From Deltaproteobacteria bacterium (GTDB lineage Bacteria > Myxococcota_A > UBA796 > JAFGLY01): DNA of 48,018 nt. A model generated the notes under the pieces. It ran no database searches. It saw only the letters and a program-made list of their open reading frames with translations, and was not told the DNA's origin. How positions within the stretch are numbered: position 1 is the first letter of the stretch; the number at the start of each line of letters is the position of its first letter. The stretch covers positions 1 through 48,018 of the forward strand of contig JAFGLY010000215.1 of NCBI GenBank assembly GCA_016927815.1, given 5' to 3'. This document shows positions 33,418-43,137 of the stretch, one piece after another. The position numbers and the translations under genes were made by a program.

Positions 33418-33513
33418 TACATCCTCCTGCAGCCGAGCCTCCGGCCGTGACGGCCCCGTAACGTGGCCTGGGACGATTGACCCGGACGGGCGGGAGCGCT
33501 ACCCCTACGCCCC

Positions 33514-34293
33514 ATGGTGGGCTTCCTCTTCGCCGTCGTCTGCGGTTCGGGCGCATGGGGCGCCCAGGGCGTGCCTCCCGAGTCGCCCTCGGCCGAGGTC
33601 CCCGTGTCCCCGTCCCCCAGGACGCGGCTCGAAGATGCCCTCAGGCACCACCTCGCAGGGGACCACGAGCAGGCCCGCGTGGCCCTGGTGGACCTCCTCA
33701 ACGACGACCGCGTCACGGACCGAGAGATCCGCATCCGGGCCAGGGTGTACCTCGGAGAGGTCCTGTTCGTGGAGGGCAATCGGGATGCGTCCTGGGACGC
33801 GTTCGCCGCGCTCCTCGAGGACGACCCGAGGTACCGCCTCGATCCCTACGAGCATCCTCCCGACGTGATGGCGTTCTTCGAAACCGTGCGAGCGGCACGG
33901 GCCGAGGGTCGGGCGACCCTGCCGGCCGCCGGGGTTCCGGCCCGCGTGCCGCTCCTCGCGTACGCCCCTTTCGGCGCCTGGCAGATCGCCAACCAGGAGC
34001 CCTGGACGGGATGGACGCTGGCCACGGTGCAGGTGGCCAGCGGGGTGGCCAGCCTGTGGTTGCTGGCCGACCTCACCGAGAGCCACGAGACGCGCGATCC
34101 CGAGGTGTACGACACCATGCGGCTCAAGCGACGCCTCTCGTGGACGGCCACCGCGGTGTTCTACGGGGCGTGGCTGGTCGGCGGCATCGACGCCTGGAGC
34201 GCGGCCCGCGGCACGCAGCCGTCCCGCGCGGCGGTCCAGGTCGTCCCGCTCCCGGACGGCCTGTCTGTCGCGCTCGCCGTCCGCACGCCCTGA
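33514..34293 (+). CDS. exported TPR-like protein of unknown function
   Basis: 259 residues, ATG at 33514. A short hydrophobic N-terminus (MVGFLFAVVCGSGAWGAQG) should act as signal peptide. Residues about 35-120 contain TPR-like helices (LEDALRHHLAGDHEQARVALVDLL, ARVYLGEVLFVEGNRDASWDAFAALL) and end in a RLDPYEHPPDVMAFFETVR motif. Two hydrophobic stretches follow (about 168-190 and 213-230), then a beta-type C-terminus. The layout resembles myxobacterial proteins that pair a short TPR with DUF5683-like membrane segments; I am not sure of the family. It lies 47 bases upstream of the FHA-type activator. Confidence 0.65.
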   Translation: MVGFLFAVVCGSGAWGAQGVPPESPSAEVPVSPSPRTRLEDALRHHLAGDHEQARVALVDLLNDDRVTDREIRIRARVYLGEVLFVEGNRDASWDAFAALLEDDPRYRLDPYEHPPDVMAFFETVRAARAEGRATLPAAGVPARVPLLAYAPFGAWQIANQEPWTGWTLATVQVASGVASLWLLADLTESHETRDPEVYDTMRLKRRLSWTATAVFYGAWLVGGIDAWSAARGTQPSRAAVQVVPLPDGLSVALAVRTP

Positions 34294-34315
34294 CGCCCCA
34301 CCGGTGCCGGGGGGA

Positions 34316-34321
34316 TATACT
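34316..34321 (+). promoter_or_regulatory. candidate -10 box of the FHA activator gene
   Basis: TATACT, five of six consensus bases, 20 bases before the ATG at 34341. No clear -35 was seen; upstream GC is very high. Confidence 0.35.
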
Positions 34322-34340
34322 TCGGGCCTCCGAGGAACCC

Positions 34341-36116
34341 ATGGCCTACCTGCACATCGTGGACACCGTGCGGCGGAGCACCCAGGACGTCGCGCTCCGC
34401 AAGCCGATCCTGACCCTCGGCCGCAAGCAGGGTGCGGACGTGGTCCTCGACGACGCCTCCCTGGCGCCGGTGCACGCGAACCTCGTCCAGAAGGGCGGGG
34501 GCCTCACGGTTTCCGTGGTGGAACACTCCCTGGAGCTCTACGTCAACGGGCACCGCGTCCGCACCGCCGATCTCTCCCCGGGCGACACGCTGCTCCTGGG
34601 CCGCTTCGAGATCCGGCTCGAGGGTGGCTTCCCCCCGGAAAAGACGCTTCCCCAGGAAGGTGCGGGCTTCGACACCCTCCAGCAGCTGGTGGACTTCTCC
34701 CGCGAACTGATGCGCGACACCACGCCCGAGGCGCTCTTCCACAAGCTCCTGCGCTCGGTGGTGGGCTTGACGCGGGCCGAGAAGGGGTTCGTCATCGTGT
34801 TCCAGGACGGCGAACGCCATCTCGCGGCGAGCCACAACGTCGGGGACGAGCACCTCGACCTGTCCCGCATCAGCGACAGCATCGTGGACCACGTGGTTCG
34901 CAACCGGCTGCCGCTGGTCGTGTCCGATGCCCTGCACGACCGGGCCTTCTCCACCTCCAAGAGCGTCGTGGACCTCCGGCTGTCGTCCGTGCTCTGCGTG
35001 CCGCTCATCTACCGGGAGGACCTGCTCGGGGTGATCTACCTGGGCAACGACAACGTGGCGGATCTGTTCACCGAGCGCGATCTCTCCCTCCTCGAGGTGT
35101 TCGCGAGCCAGGCGGCCATCCTGGTCCACACCGCGCTGATGCTCAACCAGCTCCAGACCTCCAACCGCAACCTGAGAGACCAGCTGCGCCGCTCGTCGCA
35201 GGGAGAGATGGTGGGGTCCTGCCCGTCCGTCCAGCAGGTCTTCCGCATGGTGCGGAGGGTTGCGCCCACCGACCTGTCCGTGCTCATCCTCGGGGAAACC
35301 GGGACCGGCAAGGAGTTGGTGGCCCGCGAGATTCACCGACTCTCGGATCGCAGCGGCAAGGCCTTCGTGTCCATCAACTGCGGAGCCATTCCGGAGAACC
35401 TGCTCGAAAGCGAGCTCTTCGGTCACAAGAAGGGCTCCTTCACCGGCGCGATGGCCGACAAGATGGGCAAGTTCGAACTGGCGGCGGGCGGCACGATCTT
35501 CCTGGACGAGATCTGCGAGATGCCGATGCACCTGCAGGTCAAGCTCCTGCGCGTCCTGCAGGAACGGCGCATCGAGCGGATCGGCGAGCTGCAGCCCCGG
35601 GCCATCGATTTCCGCCTGGTGGCCGCCACCAACAAGCCGCTCGACGAGGAGATCAAGGCCGGCCGGTTCCGCGAGGATCTGTTCTACCGGCTGAACGAGG
35701 TCGTGGTGCAGTTGCCCCCCTTGAGGGAACGCGGAGAGGACATTCTGCTGCTTGCACGCTACTTTTTGAACAAGTACGCCGAACAGGCCGGATCTCGCGT
35801 CCGGGGCTTCACCAACGAGTGCATCGAGGCCATGAACGCCAGCTTCTGGCCCGGCAACGTCCGCCAGCTCGAGAGCCGGGTGAAGCGGGCGGTCATCATG
35901 AGCGACCGGCCCCTGCTCAACCCGGCGGATCTCGGGCTGTCCCAGGGGGAGCGGATCCGGGTCGTCCCGCTTGCCGAGGCCGAGGAGGAATTCAAGCGCA
36001 CCTACGTGCGCGAGGTGCTGGAGCGGAACAACTGGAACAAGGCCCAGACCGCACGGGATCTCGACGTGGATCCACGGACCATCTTCCGGTACGTCGAAAA
36101 GCTCGAGGCCGAGTAG
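34341..36116 (+). CDS. FHA-GAF-AAA+-Fis sigma-54-dependent transcription activator
   Basis: 591 residues, ATG at 34341 with GAGGA upstream. FHA domain about 20-95: ILTLGRKQGADVVLDD, then H in APVHANLV, the phosphothreonine-binding pattern. GAF domain about 125-265: TPEALFHKLLRSV, SSVLCVPLIYREDLLGVIYLG. AAA+ module about 288-515: Walker A GETGTGKE (318-325), the sigma-54 loop written GSFTGA (365-370) instead of GAFTGA, Walker B GGTIFLDE (383-390), and the WPGNVRQLES motif. The Fis-type HTH ends the protein (NNWNKAQTARDLDVDPRTIF). Myxobacterial activators of this class respond to Ser/Thr kinases through the FHA domain. Ligand and regulon are unknown. The next gene follows after 3 bases. Confidence 0.95.
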   Translation: MAYLHIVDTVRRSTQDVALRKPILTLGRKQGADVVLDDASLAPVHANLVQKGGGLTVSVVEHSLELYVNGHRVRTADLSPGDTLLLGRFEIRLEGGFPPEKTLPQEGAGFDTLQQLVDFSRELMRDTTPEALFHKLLRSVVGLTRAEKGFVIVFQDGERHLAASHNVGDEHLDLSRISDSIVDHVVRNRLPLVVSDALHDRAFSTSKSVVDLRLSSVLCVPLIYREDLLGVIYLGNDNVADLFTERDLSLLEVFASQAAILVHTALMLNQLQTSNRNLRDQLRRSSQGEMVGSCPSVQQVFRMVRRVAPTDLSVLILGETGTGKELVAREIHRLSDRSGKAFVSINCGAIPENLLESELFGHKKGSFTGAMADKMGKFELAAGGTIFLDEICEMPMHLQVKLLRVLQERRIERIGELQPRAIDFRLVAATNKPLDEEIKAGRFREDLFYRLNEVVVQLPPLRERGEDILLLARYFLNKYAEQAGSRVRGFTNECIEAMNASFWPGNVRQLESRVKRAVIMSDRPLLNPADLGLSQGERIRVVPLAEAEEEFKRTYVREVLERNNWNKAQTARDLDVDPRTIFRYVEKLEAE

Positions 36117-36596: not shown

Positions 36597-37201
36597 GGAT
36601 CGTGGGGATCACGGGAGGCATCGCGTCGGGGAAGTCCCTGGTGGCCGGCTGGATGCGCGACACCTGGGGCGTCCCCGTGCTGGATGCGGATCTCGTGGCC
36701 CGGCAGGTGGTGGCCCCCGGGTCGCCCGTGCTCGAGGCCGTGGTCGCTGCGTTCGGGCCGTCGGTACTGGGTCTGGACGGCGACCTGGATCGCGCGGCGC
36801 TCGGCGCCCGGGTCTCACGGGACCCCGCGGCCCGGAGGCGGCTCGAGGCCCTCACCCACCCGGCCATCTGGGCCGAAATCGAGGCCTGGCTCCGGGAACG
36901 GGCCGCCGAGGGGCACGCCCTGGCGGCCGTGGAAGCGGCCCTCATCGTGGAAACCGGCCAGGCCGGCCGTTTCGACGCCCTCGTGGTCGTCACCGCGCCG
37001 AGGGCGCTCCGGGTGCAGCGCCTCGTGGAGCGCCGGGGCCTCACCGAAGCCCAGGCTCGGGCCTGGGTGGACTCCCAGGCACCGGAGGACGAGAAGGTCC
37101 GCTTGGGCGACGTGGTCCTGGCCAACGACGGATCGCCGGCCGACCTCCGGGTCGCCCTGGCGGCCGCTTGGCGGCGGATCCGGGGGGATGGAGTTCAGTA
37201 G
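36593..37201 (+). CDS. coaE: dephospho-CoA kinase
   Basis: 202 residues from the GTG at 36593, overlapping the previous stop (GTGA). P-loop GITGGIASGKS at about residues 5-15, then VPVLDADLVARQVVAPG (substrate-binding DAD motif), LTHPAIW, a lid region, and VVVTAPRALRVQRLVERRGL, all typical of CoaE. The usual length is about 200. It phosphorylates dephospho-CoA at the 3'-OH, the last step of CoA synthesis. The 'LIVETG' segment replaces the common 'PLLFE(T/A)G'. It converges on apt; the two stop codons are interleaved within 7 bases. Confidence 0.92.
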   Translation: MRIVGITGGIASGKSLVAGWMRDTWGVPVLDADLVARQVVAPGSPVLEAVVAAFGPSVLGLDGDLDRAALGARVSRDPAARRRLEALTHPAIWAEIEAWLRERAAEGHALAAVEAALIVETGQAGRFDALVVVTAPRALRVQRLVERRGLTEAQARAWVDSQAPEDEKVRLGDVVLANDGSPADLRVALAAAWRRIRGDGVQ

Positions 37202-37722
37202 CGGATCAGGCTCTCGACAAGGGTGCCCTCGAGCAGCTTCCGTCCGCCCAGGAACCCGAGCTCCACCACGAAGCAGCAGGCCAGCACCTCGGCCCCCAGT
37301 TCCCGAACGAGCGCGCACGTGGCCCGGGCCGTGCCGCCCGTGGCCAGGAGATCGTCCACGACGAGCGCCCGCTGCCCGGGCCGAAGTGCGTCCACGTGCA
37401 ACTCCAGCCGGTTGGTCCCGTACTCCAGGGCGTACTCGTGCCCGATGGTCTTCCAGGGGAGCTTTCCGGGCTTGCGGGCGGGCACGAAGGCGCAGCGCAG
37501 GGCCAGCGCGAGGGGCGCTCCGAAGAGGAAGCCGCGGCTCTCCATGCCCACCACCGCGTCCACGCCGGCATCGCGGAACCGAACGGCGAAGGCCTGCACC
37601 ACGTCCTCCATCAACTCGGGATCCGCGAGGACGGGCGTGATGTCCTTGAATACGACGCCGGGCTGGGGGAAGTCCGGTACGTCGCGGATCGTCCGCTCGA
37701 GCCGGTCGGCGAGGTCGTTCAT
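37195..37722 (-). CDS. apt: adenine phosphoribosyltransferase
   Basis: 175 residues from the ATG at 37722 (GGAG 7 bases upstream; the open frame begins a little earlier). It starts LADRLERTIRDVPDFPQPGVVFKDITPVL, the APRT N-terminal signature. Then GMESRGFLFGAPLALAL, ARKPGKLPWKTIGHEYALEYG, and the PRPP-binding motif ALVVDDLLATGGTARA. The enzyme makes AMP from adenine and PRPP in purine salvage. Length and motifs are normal. It is on the minus strand after surE, whose 3' end lies 13 bases upstream of this start, so the two are likely cotranscribed. Confidence 0.96.
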   Translation of the reverse strand: MNDLADRLERTIRDVPDFPQPGVVFKDITPVLADPELMEDVVQAFAVRFRDAGVDAVVGMESRGFLFGAPLALALRCAFVPARKPGKLPWKTIGHEYALEYGTNRLELHVDALRPGQRALVVDDLLATGGTARATCALVRELGAEVLACCFVVELGFLGGRKLLEGTLVESLIRY

Positions 37723-37735
37723 GGAGGCACTCCGT

Positions 37736-38554
37736 TCAGGGGGTCCCGCATCGGGACCGAAGCACATCGGGACGGTTCCGGACTCCCGGAGGGGTCAGGA
37801 TCGGCAGGGCCGAGACGGCGTCCATCCAGGCCTCGGCCGTGGCATCCAGGACCAGGGGCGTGACCGTGGCCCACCCGGCGTGGATCAACGGTCCGTCGGT
37901 GTCGGGCAGGTCCGCGAAGGACCGATGGTTGCCTCCGATCCAGTAGTAGGGTCGATCCCTGAGATCGCGACGCTCGTCCACGTTCACGTGCCAGCGCCGC
38001 CGGCCGAGACGCGCCAGGCGCACACCTTGCTGCTCGGCGGCGGGTCGATCCGGGACGTTCAAGTTCACCAGCACGTCCGGGGGCAGGGGGTGGGCGAGGA
38101 GATCCTCCACCAGCCTGCGCGTGAGGGTCTGCGCGACGTCCCAGTGGTGGGCTGCGGGGTCTTGGTCCCAGTCGAACACGAACAGGCTGGAGGCCACGGC
38201 ACGCACGCCCGCCATGGCCGCTTCTCGGGCCGCAGCCACCGTGCCCGAGTAGTAGACGTCCAGCGAGACGTTGCCGCCCCGGTTGATGCCGCACACCACG
38301 AGATCGGGCCGCTCGGGGCAGAAGTGGTGAAGACCCATGTACACGCAGTCGGCGGGTTTCCCGTCCACCGCCCACCACCGTTCCCTCACCTGGCGGGCCC
38401 TCAAGGGGCGATGGAGCGTGAGCGCGTGACCCGTGGCCGACCGCTCGGTCTCGGGGGCCACCACCCAGCAGGTGCCGAGCGGCGCGAGCGCCTCCACCAG
38501 GGCCTGGAGCCCTGGGGCGTCGAATCCGTCGTCGTTGGAGAGGAGGAAGTGCAT
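37736..38554 (-). CDS. surE: 5'/3'-nucleotidase SurE
   Basis: 272 residues. It begins MHFLLSNDDGFDAPGLQAL; the SNDDG at residues 6-10 binds the catalytic metal. Then VVAPETERSATGHALTL (the conserved 'vaP...SG.s..iT' loop), GKPADCVYMGL, PDLVVCGINRGGNVSLDVYYSGTVAAAREA, which completes the metal site, and VLVNLNVPD. SurE removes phosphate from nucleoside monophosphates and short polyphosphates in stationary phase. Length is normal (about 250-270). It heads a short leftward operon with apt and diverges from the HEAT-repeat gene. Confidence 0.95.
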   Translation of the reverse strand: MHFLLSNDDGFDAPGLQALVEALAPLGTCWVVAPETERSATGHALTLHRPLRARQVRERWWAVDGKPADCVYMGLHHFCPERPDLVVCGINRGGNVSLDVYYSGTVAAAREAAMAGVRAVASSLFVFDWDQDPAAHHWDVAQTLTRRLVEDLLAHPLPPDVLVNLNVPDRPAAEQQGVRLARLGRRRWHVNVDERRDLRDRPYYWIGGNHRSFADLPDTDGPLIHAGWATVTPLVLDATAEAWMDAVSALPILTPPGVRNRPDVLRSRCGTP

Positions 38555-39114: not shown

Positions 39115-41976
39115 ATGAAACCACGCCTCGTTCGTCTTCCGCGGGCCGCGGCATGGGCTGTGCTCGCGATCCTCCTGCTCCTGCCGGCGCCCCGGGCCGG
39201 GGCTCGGCCGGATCCCTGGGAGACCACGCTCGCACGCGTCGCCCGGGCCGTGCTCACCATCGAGGTGTCGGCCACCCGCCCCCTCGACACGGAGGGCGCC
39301 ACGGCCACGGAGGGCACCGGCTTCATCGTGGACCTCGCCCGTGGCCTGGTCCTCACGAACCGGCACATGGTCCACGTGGGCCCGGTGCGGGCCCGGGGCA
39401 TCACGCTCGACAAGGAGGAGGTCGAACTCGAGCCCATCTATCGCGACCCCGTCCACGACTTCGGGTTCTACCGATTCGATCCCTCCGAGGTCCGGTTCAT
39501 GGGTCTGGCCGAGCTCTCCCTCCAGCCGGAGCGGGCGCGCGTGGGCACCGCGATCCGCGTGGTGGGCAACGATGCGGGGGAAAAGCTCTCCATCCTCGAC
39601 GGTACCCTGGCACGCCTCGATCGACCGGCGCCCCACTACGGCACCGACTCCTACAACGACTTCAACACCTTCTACTACCAGGCCGCCACCTCCACCTCCG
39701 GTGGATCCTCGGGCTCCCCGGTGGTGGACGTCACGGGAGCCGTCCTGGCGCTCAACGCGGGCGGTGCCACGTCGGCCGCCTCCTCCTTCTACCTCCCGGT
39801 GCACCGGGCACGGCGCGCGCTCGACCTGCTCCGGCGGGGGGAACCCGTGCCTCGAGGGGACATCCAGGCCACCCTCCTCTACCAGCCCTTCGAGGTCTTG
39901 AGCCGCCTGGGGCTCGCACCGGGCACCGAGGCCGCGGTGCGCAAGGCTCTGCCCCGTGCCGAGGGAATGCTGGTGGTGGACAGCGTCGTACCGGGTGGGC
40001 CCTGCGACGGCCTCGTGCAGCCCGGGGACATCCTGGTCCGCGTGGCCGGCCGGCTCGCCGAGGACTTCGACGTCCTCGAGGACGCGCTCGATGCCCGCGT
40101 GGGCCAGCAGGTCCGGCTCGCGCTCGATCGGGCCGGGAGGTCCGTAGAGGTGGACGTGCGGGTGGACGACCTCCATCGTCTCACACCCTCCCGCTTCATC
40201 GAGTTCTCCCAGGCGATCCTCCAGGAGACCTCCCTCCAGATCGCCCGGAACCGCCACGTCCCGGCCCGGGGCGTGGTCCTGATCGAGCCGGGATACGCCT
40301 TCCGCAACGCCCGGATCGGATCCGGAACCCTCGTCCTGGCCGTCGACGACCAGCCGGTGGAGGATCTCGACGCCCTCGCGTCCCTTCTCGCCGGGCTGCC
40401 CGATGGCCGCAAGGTGCGGGTCCGGTACCGGGGCCTGTCCAGCTTCCACCAGGACAAGGTGGCGGTGCTCACCGTGGACCGCCACTGGTCGCCCGCCCGG
40501 GACTGCCGGCGCAACGACGCGAGCGGTCTCTGGGACTGCCACGACCTTCCCGAGCCTCCCACGGCGCCCGCCCTGCAAGCCCCCGGAGCCTCGGCCTCCT
40601 TCGAGGCGGTCCGCGATCCGGTGGCCGCGCGCCTCGCACCGTCGCTGTGCCACATACGGTTCACGATCCCCTTCCGGACCGAGGGGGTCGAGGGATGGTC
40701 CTACATCGGCACCGGCCTGGTGGTGGACACCCAAGAGGGCCTGGTGGTCACGGACCGGGGCACGGTGCCCATCTCGCTGGGCGACGCTGAACTCACCTTC
40801 GCCGGATCCGTGCGGGTGCCCGCCGAGGTGCTGTTTCTGCACCCGGTCCACAACGTGGCCGTGCTCAGGTACGATCCCGCACGGCTCGGGTCCGTGCCGG
40901 TGGTGGCCGCCCGCCTCGCACCCGGTGCCGACCTCGACGCCGGCGACGCGGTGCACCAGGTGGGGCTCACCTCCTCCTCCCGCGTGGTGTCCCAGTCCAC
41001 GCGCATCACGCGGGTGGACCTCGCCGCGGGCGCCTCGCCCCGTCCCCCCTGCTTCCAGGAGGCCAACGCCGAGGTCTGGCAGATCGCCGAGGCGGCTTCG
41101 TCCATCGGAGGCGTACTGGCCGACCGAGAGGCCCGCGTGGTGGGCCTGTGGGCCTTCCAACTCGAAGACTCCGGCTCGGGACACTTCTACGGCCTGCCCG
41201 TGGACAGCGTGGTGGACGTGGTGGAGCCTTTCCGGCGGGGCCAGGAGCCCGTCCTGCGCGACCTGGGCCTCGAGGTGGACACCGAGAGCCTGGCCGGGGT
41301 TCGCGACCAGGGGTTGCCCGCCGCGCTGGTGACCCGCCTCGAACAGGCCGACCCGGAGCGGCGCCAGGCCCTCGTGGTGCTCCGGATCCACCCCGACGCG
41401 CCCGCGGCCTCGGTCCTCGCAGGCGGCGACGTGCTCCTGGCACTCGACGGCGTCCCCGTCACGCGGCCCCGGCAGATCGAGTCGCTCCTCGCCGACGCCG
41501 GCCCCACGGTACGCGTCACGCGCCTGGTGGACGGGCGCGTCGAGGACGTCGAGGTGGAACCGGTGGTCCTGGACGGCCGGGGGATCCGGCGGGCCGTGGC
41601 CTTTGCCGGGGCCCTGCTCCACGCGCCGCACCGGGCCCTGGGCATGATGTACGGCCTGCCGGCCGACGGCCTGTACCTGTCCTGGTACTGGTACGGAGGC
41701 CCTGCGGCCCAGTACGGCCTCCACGCCAGTACGCTCGTCCGTGCCGTGAACGACGTGCCGGTCCACGACCTCGACAGCTTTCTCGCGGTGGTCCGAACCC
41801 TCGGGGATCGCGCGCCGGTCCGCGTGAGGGTCTGCGGGCTGAACGGCGCCGAGTCGGTCCACACGCTGCTCACCGACCAGGTCTACTGGCCCACCTCGCT
41901 CCTGGAACGCGGTTCCGGCGGCTGGCACCACGCGCCCCTCCACTCCGAGGATGCCAAGGGCGCGAGCCTGAGGTAG
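39115..41976 (+). CDS. Nma111-like double HtrA serine protease
   Basis: 953 residues, ATG at 39115, signal peptide about 1-30 (ending RAGA), so periplasmic. The first trypsin-like domain (about 35-240) has triad His84 (LVLTNRHMV), Asp115 (YRDPVHDFGFYRFDP) and Ser199 (GGSSGSPVVD), with the stretch IRVVGNDAGEKLSILDGTLA and YNDFNTFYYQAA. These match, almost word for word, the eukaryotic Nma111/Ynm3 family as I know it. PDZ-like segments follow (LVQPGDILVRVAGRL, GTLVLAVDDQPVEDLDALASL). A second protease-like domain (about 505-730) is degenerate: His replaced (TDRGTVP), Asp changed to Asn (HPVHNVAVLRYDP), Ser site IGGVL. More PDZ-like units end the protein. Nma111 is also a double, half-inactive HtrA. 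The role here is probably envelope protein quality control; substrates are unknown. Confidence 0.88.
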   Translation: MKPRLVRLPRAAAWAVLAILLLLPAPRAGARPDPWETTLARVARAVLTIEVSATRPLDTEGATATEGTGFIVDLARGLVLTNRHMVHVGPVRARGITLDKEEVELEPIYRDPVHDFGFYRFDPSEVRFMGLAELSLQPERARVGTAIRVVGNDAGEKLSILDGTLARLDRPAPHYGTDSYNDFNTFYYQAATSTSGGSSGSPVVDVTGAVLALNAGGATSAASSFYLPVHRARRALDLLRRGEPVPRGDIQATLLYQPFEVLSRLGLAPGTEAAVRKALPRAEGMLVVDSVVPGGPCDGLVQPGDILVRVAGRLAEDFDVLEDALDARVGQQVRLALDRAGRSVEVDVRVDDLHRLTPSRFIEFSQAILQETSLQIARNRHVPARGVVLIEPGYAFRNARIGSGTLVLAVDDQPVEDLDALASLLAGLPDGRKVRVRYRGLSSFHQDKVAVLTVDRHWSPARDCRRNDASGLWDCHDLPEPPTAPALQAPGASASFEAVRDPVAARLAPSLCHIRFTIPFRTEGVEGWSYIGTGLVVDTQEGLVVTDRGTVPISLGDAELTFAGSVRVPAEVLFLHPVHNVAVLRYDPARLGSVPVVAARLAPGADLDAGDAVHQVGLTSSSRVVSQSTRITRVDLAAGASPRPPCFQEANAEVWQIAEAASSIGGVLADREARVVGLWAFQLEDSGSGHFYGLPVDSVVDVVEPFRRGQEPVLRDLGLEVDTESLAGVRDQGLPAALVTRLEQADPERRQALVVLRIHPDAPAASVLAGGDVLLALDGVPVTRPRQIESLLADAGPTVRVTRLVDGRVEDVEVEPVVLDGRGIRRAVAFAGALLHAPHRALGMMYGLPADGLYLSWYWYGGPAAQYGLHASTLVRAVNDVPVHDLDSFLAVVRTLGDRAPVRVRVCGLNGAESVHTLLTDQVYWPTSLLERGSGGWHHAPLHSEDAKGASLR

Positions 41977-42012: not shown

Positions 42013-43137
42013 GTGCGTGCCTTCTTCCTCTTCCTGGCCCTCCAGGCCTGCGACTCCTCGAACGATCTCGTGGTTCCGCCTCCCTACGACACGGCCGAGA
42101 ACGCCGATCGAGACGACGACGGGTGGACCGTGGGCGAGGGCGACTGCAACGACGACGATCCGGCCGTGAACCCGGGGGCCGACGAGATCCCCTGCGACTT
42201 CATCGACAACGACTGTCACAGCGGGGATCTCACCGACGCGGACAACGACGGCCACAACTGCGAGGAGGTCGGCGGAACCGACTGCGACGACAACGATCCG
42301 GCCATCCATCCGGGGGCCACGGACGAGTGCGGCGACCGGATCGATCGCGACTGCGACGGCGACGACGAGTGCGACTGCGACGACGACGGGTGGGACTCCG
42401 AGGCGACCTGCAAGGGGCAGGACTGCGACGACACCAACGCCGAGATCCATCCCAATGCCGCCGACGACGTCCCGAACGGCGTGGACGACAACTGCGACGG
42501 CGTGCCCGACGACGCTGCCCACTGCAACGCCTACGCGCCGGTCAGCAACGGTCCCGAGGCCCTCCTCACCTACGCCACGTTCTACGAGGACACCGACTAC
42601 ACCGAGACGTTCACCATCCCCAACTGGGACACCGAGGTACATCGCGGCACGGTGACCCGCCTCCTGACCGACGGACACGGGCACACACGGCAGTCGGACG
42701 CGTACTGGCGGTGCCAGGAGGGCGTGATGACGGTCTCGGGCTTCTCCTACCTGGAGGACGGCAAGTCCGTGGCCTGGATCACCTACAGCAAGCCGCACCC
42801 CTTCCTCGCCAGCCCGGCCTCCCTCGGCCCGGGCGAGGAGTGGAGCTACGCGTATACCGCCTGGGAAGGCTCCCTCGGAGCGCTCTGGGCGAGGAGCGGC
42901 ACGTACACGAGCCTGGGCGTCGGGAGCATCACGGTGGCAGCCGGCGCCTTCGAGGCTCTCGAGATCATGGAGGAATACGAGCAGGTAGATCTGCAACTCG
43001 GCATCTACGACGCCCGGGGCACGGTCCACCTGTGGTACGTCTGGGGCCTGGGCCTGGTGCTCTACGAGGATCGTGACGAAAAGGGCGAGATCCAGGAGTG
43101 CCGCGAGCTGGAGTCCTACACGGGATTCTACCCCTGA
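42013..43137 (+). CDS. MopE-type metal-binding-motif lipoprotein
   Basis: 374 residues, GTG at 42013 with GGAGGTGACTC just upstream. A short signal peptide ends LQAC (Cys13), a plausible lipobox. Residues about 30-165 hold three copies of the MopE motif: DCNDDDPAVNPGADEIPCDF, DCDDNDPAIHPGATDECGDR and DCDDTNAEIHPNAADDVPNG, each ending with (D/R)DNC- or DRDCDG-type cysteines. These short Asp/Cys-rich units are expected to bind Ca2+ or Cu and are abundant in myxobacterial surface proteins. The C-terminal 200 residues form a beta-rich domain I do not recognise. The 3' end overlaps the next gene by 40 bases. Confidence 0.82.
   Translation: MRAFFLFLALQACDSSNDLVVPPPYDTAENADRDDDGWTVGEGDCNDDDPAVNPGADEIPCDFIDNDCHSGDLTDADNDGHNCEEVGGTDCDDNDPAIHPGATDECGDRIDRDCDGDDECDCDDDGWDSEATCKGQDCDDTNAEIHPNAADDVPNGVDDNCDGVPDDAAHCNAYAPVSNGPEALLTYATFYEDTDYTETFTIPNWDTEVHRGTVTRLLTDGHGHTRQSDAYWRCQEGVMTVSGFSYLEDGKSVAWITYSKPHPFLASPASLGPGEEWSYAYTAWEGSLGALWARSGTYTSLGVGSITVAAGAFEALEIMEEYEQVDLQLGIYDARGTVHLWYVWGLGLVLYEDRDEKGEIQECRELESYTGFYP

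What the first reader, a model, noticed from the sequence alone, without database searches (positions are those of the whole stretch)
39115..41976. Bacterial homologue of eukaryotic Nma111 double HtrA protease
The first domain shares long, distinctive stretches with Nma111/Ynm3 (TNRHMV, YRDPVHDFGF, VVGNDAGEKLSI, YNDFNT, GGSSGSPVVD), with an intact triad, then PDZ units and a second protease-like domain that lost all three catalytic residues. This is the eukaryotic architecture, here with a signal peptide. It bears on the origin of Nma111 in eukaryotes and suggests a periplasmic quality-control protease with a pseudo-protease half.
Basis: partly seen in the sequence, partly recalled or inferred. 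Interest (0 to 1): 0.72.

Follow-up and report, generated by a model that had tools for sequence, protein, structure and literature searches.

The report
Bacterial double HtrA protease, Nma111/Deg7-like
This gene encodes a secreted protein-quality-control protease with one working and one dead protease half, the same unusual layout as Nma111 in yeast and Deg7 in plants, and it belongs to a wide but apparently undescribed bacterial family from which those eukaryotic enzymes may have come.

Summary
Window 39115-41976 (+) encodes 953 aa: signal peptide, active HtrA protease (H84/D115/S199), PDZ, PDZ_1 (PF12812), linker, a second HtrA-fold domain with all three catalytic residues lost, PDZ, PDZ_1. 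The two halves align end to end (E 1e-42, 25% identity) and match each other better than any ordinary HtrA tested, so the whole module was duplicated.

It is not a one-off. Full-length relatives occur in about a third of sampled Myxococcota and about 6% of sampled Gammaproteobacteria. The D1 triad is invariant and D2 is always degenerate (HPxHN). All form a clade apart from DegP/DegQ/DegS/HtrA2, which refutes convergent duplication of a DegP.

New details: (1) a Cys pair (C464/C475), invariant in 114 members, placed as a cross-strand pair in a predicted hairpin; (2) one Myxococcota family whose members lack both the signal peptide and the Cys pair, as the eukaryotic proteins do.

The origin of Nma111/Deg7 becomes testable but is not resolved here. 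Bacterial kinship of the yeast protease was already noted in 2018.

The parts
39115..41976 (+). Whole gene: double HtrA protease, 953 aa plus stop
   Evidence: Open frame; a single full-length hit in its own genome
39115..39204 (+). Predicted Sec signal peptide, residues 1-30 (MKPRLVRLPRAAAWAVLAILLLLPAPRAGA)
   Evidence: Sequence; hydrophobic N-terminal segment in 110 of 113 Cys-pair members with readable N-termini
39220..39843 (+). Protease domain 1 (active), residues 36-243; catalytic H84 (39364-39366), D115 (39457-39459), S199 (39709-39711)
   Evidence: Pfam PF13365; triad invariant in the family
39952..40170 (+). PDZ domain 1, about residues 280-352
   Evidence: Pfam PDZ_6 match at 287-339; AlphaFold secondary structure
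40180..40404 (+). PDZ_1 (PF12812), first copy, residues 356-430
   Evidence: 53.8 bits, cut-off 28
40498..40545 (+). Linker hairpin with conserved Cys pair C464 (40504-40506) and C475 (40537-40539), motif RxCxRxDxxGxWxC
   Evidence: 91/91, 114/114; predicted strands 432-437 and 442-447 in mature numbering
40642..41280 (+). Protease-fold domain 2 (pseudo-protease), residues 510-722; G549, N580, I664 stand at the His, Asp and Ser sites
41353..41556 (+). PDZ domain of second half, residues 747-814
   Evidence: Pfam PDZ_2
41590..41811 (+). PDZ_1 (PF12812), second copy
   Evidence: 35.4 bits, cut-off 28

Best explanation
A bacterial, exported, full-length member of the Nma111/Deg7 type of HtrA protease. 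One PD-PDZ-PDZ_1 module was duplicated in tandem (shown by the half-to-half match). The first half kept a complete catalytic triad and is the ATP-independent endoprotease (inferred from residues and fold). The second half lost all three residues early, before the sampled bacterial lineages diverged, and is kept as a scaffold: by analogy with the published trimerisation of Arabidopsis DEG7 through its degenerate protease domain, it probably holds the oligomer together, leaving the active half free to take substrates presented by the four PDZ-type domains (inferred). The protein is exported to the periplasm by its signal peptide (predicted), where the conserved C464-C475 pair probably forms a disulfide bracing the linker between the halves (inferred from invariance and predicted hairpin register). 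Its job is most likely general degradation or holding of misfolded envelope proteins beside the ordinary DegP/DegQ-type HtrAs also present in the genome.
For: Domain order and intact/degenerate triads. Half1 against half2: probability 100, E 1.2e-42, 425 columns, 25% identity; the half2 profile scores half1 sequences 129-154 bits but the best ordinary HtrA 57 bits. D1 clade 98/97 against DegP/DegQ/DegS/HtrA2 and other HtrAs, D2 group 94/76. Confident model and HtrA fold of the second half. Recalled AtDEG7 and yeast Nma111 second halves score 385 and 306 bits with the bacterial half2 profile, against 129-154 for first halves; yeast aligns to the window over 919 columns at 34.5%. Cys pair 114/114 in exported members, absent from the members without a signal peptide. 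Other HtrA genes in the genome. Published domain order and DEG7 trimerisation through the inactive domain are described in PMC3473262.
Against: No activity, localisation or oligomer data exist for any bacterial member found here. DEG7-type trimerisation may not carry over to bacteria. Gene neighbours differ between lineages and point to no substrate.
Confidence: 0.72

Rival explanations
1. An ordinary DegP/DegQ-type HtrA that duplicated independently in this lineage, resembling Nma111 only by convergence.
For: Same fold and general domain kinds; DegP and DegQ are among the nearest solved structures.
Against: D1 of the family is apart from DegP/Q/S with 98/97 support. TIGR02037 scores 106 bits against a cut-off of 416. 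PF12812 occurs in both halves, over cut-off in 0 of 14 control genomes. Half2 is far closer to half1 of the same family than to any DegP. The same degenerate D2 motifs recur across two phyla.
Confidence: 0.03
2. Eukaryotic genes moved into bacteria (eukaryote-to-bacterium transfer) rather than the reverse.
For: Unrooted full-length trees do not fix direction.
Against: Bacterial members are numerous and diverse (494 confirmed relatives in one scan, two phyla) and show phylum-specific conserved gene neighbourhoods. In the D1 tree the recalled Arabidopsis row falls inside a group of Myxococcota (98/91). All but one bacterial family carry the Cys pair and the export signal, which would have to be gained.
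Confidence: 0.08
3. The second half is not a scaffold but a substrate-binding or chaperone half, or an allosteric regulator of the first, with oligomerisation still carried by D1 as in other HtrAs.
For: The fold is intact with high confidence, it has its own PDZ pair, and yeast Ynm3 is reported to have chaperone activity (stated in PMC4877387).
Against: The only experimental precedent known to me for this architecture, DEG7, trimerises through the degenerate domain (cited in PMC3473262).
Confidence: 0.17

Closest known systems
Yeast Nma111/Ynm3 (fungal HtrA-like protease)
   Same: PD-PDZ-PDZ_1-pseudoPD-PDZ-PDZ_1 order, intact triad in PD1, PF12812 in both halves, collinear over 919 columns at 34.5% identity (recalled sequence)
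   Different: Nuclear and without an export signal (literature); no Cys pair in the linker; D2 more diverged
Plant DEG7 (clade III Deg/HtrA)
   Same: Published order PD-PDZ-PDZ-PDia-PDZ-PDZ (PMC3473262); D2 motifs DKNTV, HPVHN and F at the Ser site match the bacterial consensus; 44% identity in the first half and 31% in the second (recalled sequence)
   Different: Chloroplast stroma; about 1097 aa with a longer linker; no Cys pair
DegP/DegQ/DegS (Do-family HtrA)
   Same: HtrA protease fold plus PDZ, signal peptide, periplasmic quality control
   Different: One protease domain; TIGR02037 score far under cut-off; separate clade
Bacterial relatives of yeast HTRA/OMI noted by Klim et al. 2018 (PMC5982838)
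   Same: They report bacterial proteins nearer to the yeast protease than to human HTRA, and Pfam PDZ1 in the fungal type
   Different: In the passages read, no double-protease bacterial family, phylum, export signal or Cys pair is described

Membership tests
Nma111/Deg7-type double HtrA | Two HtrA protease domains and four PDZ-type domains in the order PD-PDZ-PDZ-PDia-PDZ-PDZ | tested here: met
Nma111/Deg7-type double HtrA | Complete catalytic triad in the first protease domain | tested here: met
   H84, D115, S199; invariant in 91 relatives
Nma111/Deg7-type double HtrA | Degenerate triad in the second protease domain | tested here: met
   G549, N580, I664
Nma111/Deg7-type double HtrA | Pfam PDZ_1 (PF12812), reported for the fungal type and absent from the mammalian branch | tested here: met
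   Two matches over cut-off; literature statement in PMC5982838
Nma111/Deg7-type double HtrA | Each half groups with the corresponding eukaryotic half | tested here: inconclusive
Checks: AtDEG7 length 1097 equals the published value; PF12812 191.9 bits for yeast
Nma111/Deg7-type double HtrA | Oligomerisation through the degenerate protease domain (shown for DEG7) | not testable with these tools
   Only monomers were modelled
Nma111/Deg7-type double HtrA | Serine protease and chaperone activity | not testable with these tools
   Needs biochemistry
DegP/DegQ (Do family, TIGR02037) | Score above the curated family cut-off | tested here: not met
   106.2 bits against 416.2
DegP/DegQ (Do family, TIGR02037) | Groups with DegP/DegQ in a tree of protease domains | tested here: not met
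   Separate clades, 98/97

The most novel reading that the evidence does not exclude
Eukaryotic Nma111/Deg7 did not come with the alphaproteobacterial mitochondrion but from a myxobacterium-like lineage that already had the complete double protease. Loss of the export signal and of the disulfide pair, as seen in one extant Myxococcota family (group f32), marks the route to a cytosolic/nuclear enzyme.
Probability: 0.25. Interest if true: 0.75.

Novelty: new variant of a known kind. Interest (0 to 1): 0.5.

Why it matters
The double HtrA has been discussed for fungi (as an apoptosis protease) and plants (photosystem II repair), and eukaryotic HtrA is often assigned to the mitochondrial ancestor (repeated in PMC6411480). 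A diverse bacterial family with the same two-half design, the same dead second half and, in most members, an export signal gives an outgroup for the eukaryotic proteins, makes the donor question directly testable, and offers bacterial material for asking what a pseudo-protease half does. The Cys pair that goes with export is a simple handle for experiments.

Tried and rejected
Convergent duplication of a DegP: rejected. Artefact of one assembly: rejected, because the gene recurs in 51 of 58 sampled relatives and across two phyla. Plasmid- or virus-borne gene: no close relative. Solved structure of the whole architecture: none found in the PDB by sequence or fold. Conserved operon partner: none shared across lineages; Gammaproteobacteria have glycine-cleavage genes upstream, some Myxococcota a homoserine dehydrogenase and a lumazine-binding (riboflavin synthase-like) gene, and only the nearest relative L012 shares the window's neighbours. 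Sister relation of eukaryotes to the export-less family f32: not supported by the best tree and not rejected (p-AU 0.105). Eukaryotes as one clade: 87/87 in one taxon set but 53/23 in another and not recovered when long bacterial branches are kept. A single-class test of Alphaproteobacteria failed: the genomes chosen as centres turned out to lie in the same class as the gammaproteobacterial centre. No authentic eukaryotic sequence could be fetched with the tools, and text search for the motifs found nothing.

Full report
What is there. Window 39115-41976 (+) is one open frame of 953 codons and stop. An ATG at 39115 starts a typical signal peptide (MKPRLVRLPRAAAWAVLAILLLLPAPRAGA). Pfam gives Trypsin_2 at 67-213 (E 1.4e-27), PDZ_1 PF12812 (E 2.3e-22, two stretches) and further PDZ matches in both halves. 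Trypsin_2 also rises above its cut-off in the second half (28.3 against 27.6 bits).

Triads. D1 has H84, D115 and S199, invariant in the aligned relatives (90/90, 90/90, 91/91). In D2 the equivalent positions are G549, N580 and I664 in the window. Family-wide the His site is N/D/E/G, the Asp site N in 87 of 91 (D in 2), and the Ser site mostly F, Y, V, L or I. The second half is therefore catalytically dead throughout the family, and its degenerate residues are themselves conserved (HPxHN), which argues for selection on the dead domain.

Internal duplication. Profiles of the two halves align over 425 columns with probability 100 and E 1.2e-42 at 25% identity. A profile of second halves scores first halves of the same family at 129-154 bits, but the best ordinary HtrA at only 57 (DegP 50, DegQ 30, human HtrA2 24). 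The unit duplicated was the whole PD-PDZ-PDZ_1 module.

Structure. AlphaFold on an alignment of 48 relatives gives pLDDT 91.2 and pTM 0.88 for the mature protein, and 94.8 and 0.92 for the second half alone. Foldseek places the second half on DegP, DegQ and Deg9 (E 1e-20 to 1e-22). No solved structure covers the double architecture.

Spread. A single scan of species genomes confirmed 494 relatives; the 80 best are mostly from Myxococcota (or records labelled Deltaproteobacteria) and Gammaproteobacteria, matched over nearly the full length at 43-62% identity. PF12812 is over cut-off in 51 of 58 sampled relatives of the window's genome, nearly all of the same order, and in 101 of 333 Myxococcota genomes. 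In Gammaproteobacteria 23 of 370 sampled genomes have a PF12812 match in a frame of more than 900 aa, plus one fragment at a contig end; other matches there are frames of about 400-600 aa near the cut-off, the length of ordinary DegP-like proteins, so PF12812 alone overcounts. The only control genome with any match was Bacteroides ihuae, under the cut-off. The window's genome has one copy plus other HtrA-type genes.

Relation to Nma111/Deg7. No tool here holds eukaryotic sequences. Checks on the recollection: DEG7 came out at 1097 aa, the published length (PMC3473262); both give two PF12812 stretches, yeast with 191.9 bits; the yeast text places the triad at H121/D152/S236, which agrees with the numbering I remember. 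Its length, 999, is two more than the 997 I believe is right. With these, yeast aligns to the window over 919 columns at 34.5% identity, and DEG7 at 44% in the first half and 31% in the second; against other bacterial members DEG7 reaches 48-55% in its first half. In a tree of protease domains all D1 (bacterial and eukaryotic) are one clade against nine ordinary HtrAs (98/97), and all D2 form one group (94/76). Bacterial second-half profiles score the eukaryotic second halves at 385 and 306 bits. The simplest reading is one duplication, with D2 already dead, before the bacterial and eukaryotic proteins parted. Independently of memory, PMC5982838 reports that the fungal HTRA carries PDZ1, groups with plant proteases, and has bacterial proteins closer to it than human HTRA is.

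Where the eukaryotes attach is open. In full-length trees the nearest rows to the recalled Arabidopsis protein are Myxococcota-type; yeast is a long branch. The two are one clade at 87/87 in one taxon set, at 53/23 in another, and apart when long bacterial branches are kept.

A Cys pair and an export-less clade. C464 and C475 in the linker before D2 are present in 91 of 91 members at first count and in all 114 Cys-scorable members outside one Myxococcota family, coded f32. All ten f32 members that could be scored (genomes mostly 8-13 Mb) lack the pair and show no signal peptide, as do the recalled yeast and Arabidopsis proteins. A hydrophobic N-terminal segment is found in 110 of 113 Cys-pair members and in 2 of 12 others; for one of those two (L114) the segment lies upstream of the likely start codon. 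The Fisher p-value of 1e-10 overstates the case: the 12 are one bacterial clade plus two eukaryotes, so the independent events are only two or three. The pattern is what an exported, disulfide-braced protein and a cytosolic version without it would give. Best trees put f32 next to the Gammaproteobacteria (94/90); a clade of f32 with the eukaryotes is not rejected (p-AU 0.105). The shared loss could be convergence.

How it most likely works. Exported through Sec (predicted). D1 cleaves misfolded envelope proteins without ATP, as HtrA proteases do. The four PDZ-type domains select and hold substrates. D2 serves as oligomer scaffold by analogy with DEG7, whose degenerate domain mediates trimerisation (PMC3473262, citing Schuhmann 2011). 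Shown here: domain anatomy, triads, fold, duplication, spread, Cys pair. Inferred: activity, oligomer, disulfide, location, substrate class. Gene neighbourhoods are stable within but not between lineages, consistent with a general housekeeping role and giving no specific partner.

Novelty. The architecture is known from plants and fungi, and bacterial kin of the yeast protease were noted in 2018, so this is not a new kind of system. I found no description of the bacterial double-protease family, its export, its Cys pair or the export-less clade in the open-access literature searched; subscription papers were not searchable, including the DEG7 and Ynm3 originals.

Noticed in passing
window 42013-43137 (+): Downstream gene with MopE-like metal-binding repeats (PF11617, E 3.8e-17) and a lipoprotein-like start; its neighbour relation is conserved in L012.
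   Followed up: partly
window 37195-38554 (-): A phosphoribosyltransferase-like frame (37195-37767) and surE (PF01975, 37736-38554) overlap by 32 bases; both frames have counterparts beside the homologous gene in L012.
   Followed up: partly
window, frame ending 36116 (+): The frame 33477-36116 contains, near its 3' part, what reads like an FHA-GAF sigma-54-dependent activator with a C-terminal DNA-binding helix (by eye, not scanned).
   Followed up: no
L114, L121, L133, L136-L138, L140, L141, L143: One Myxococcota family (f32, genomes mostly 8-13 Mb) has a double HtrA without signal peptide and without the Cys pair; 11 of 29 sampled genomes carry the gene.
   Followed up: yes
L109 and L112: Very divergent subgroup (about 30-34% identity) with only one detected PDZ_1, D2 motif HPxLN and a shorter D2; L109 lies in Gammaproteobacteria.
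   Followed up: partly
L046: Contig labelled Actinobacteria, but its protein and neighbours are like the soil Gammaproteobacteria loci: probably a binning error.
   Followed up: no
L034, L038, L049: The matched stretch holds one in-frame stop codon each; unresolved whether sequencing error or true break.
   Followed up: no
Gammaproteobacteria loci such as L021: Glycine cleavage genes (gcvH, gcvP) lie upstream of the gene in about 45 loci, with DUF72 and a PLP-dependent decarboxylase often downstream; the meaning of this stable neighbourhood is unclear.
   Followed up: partly
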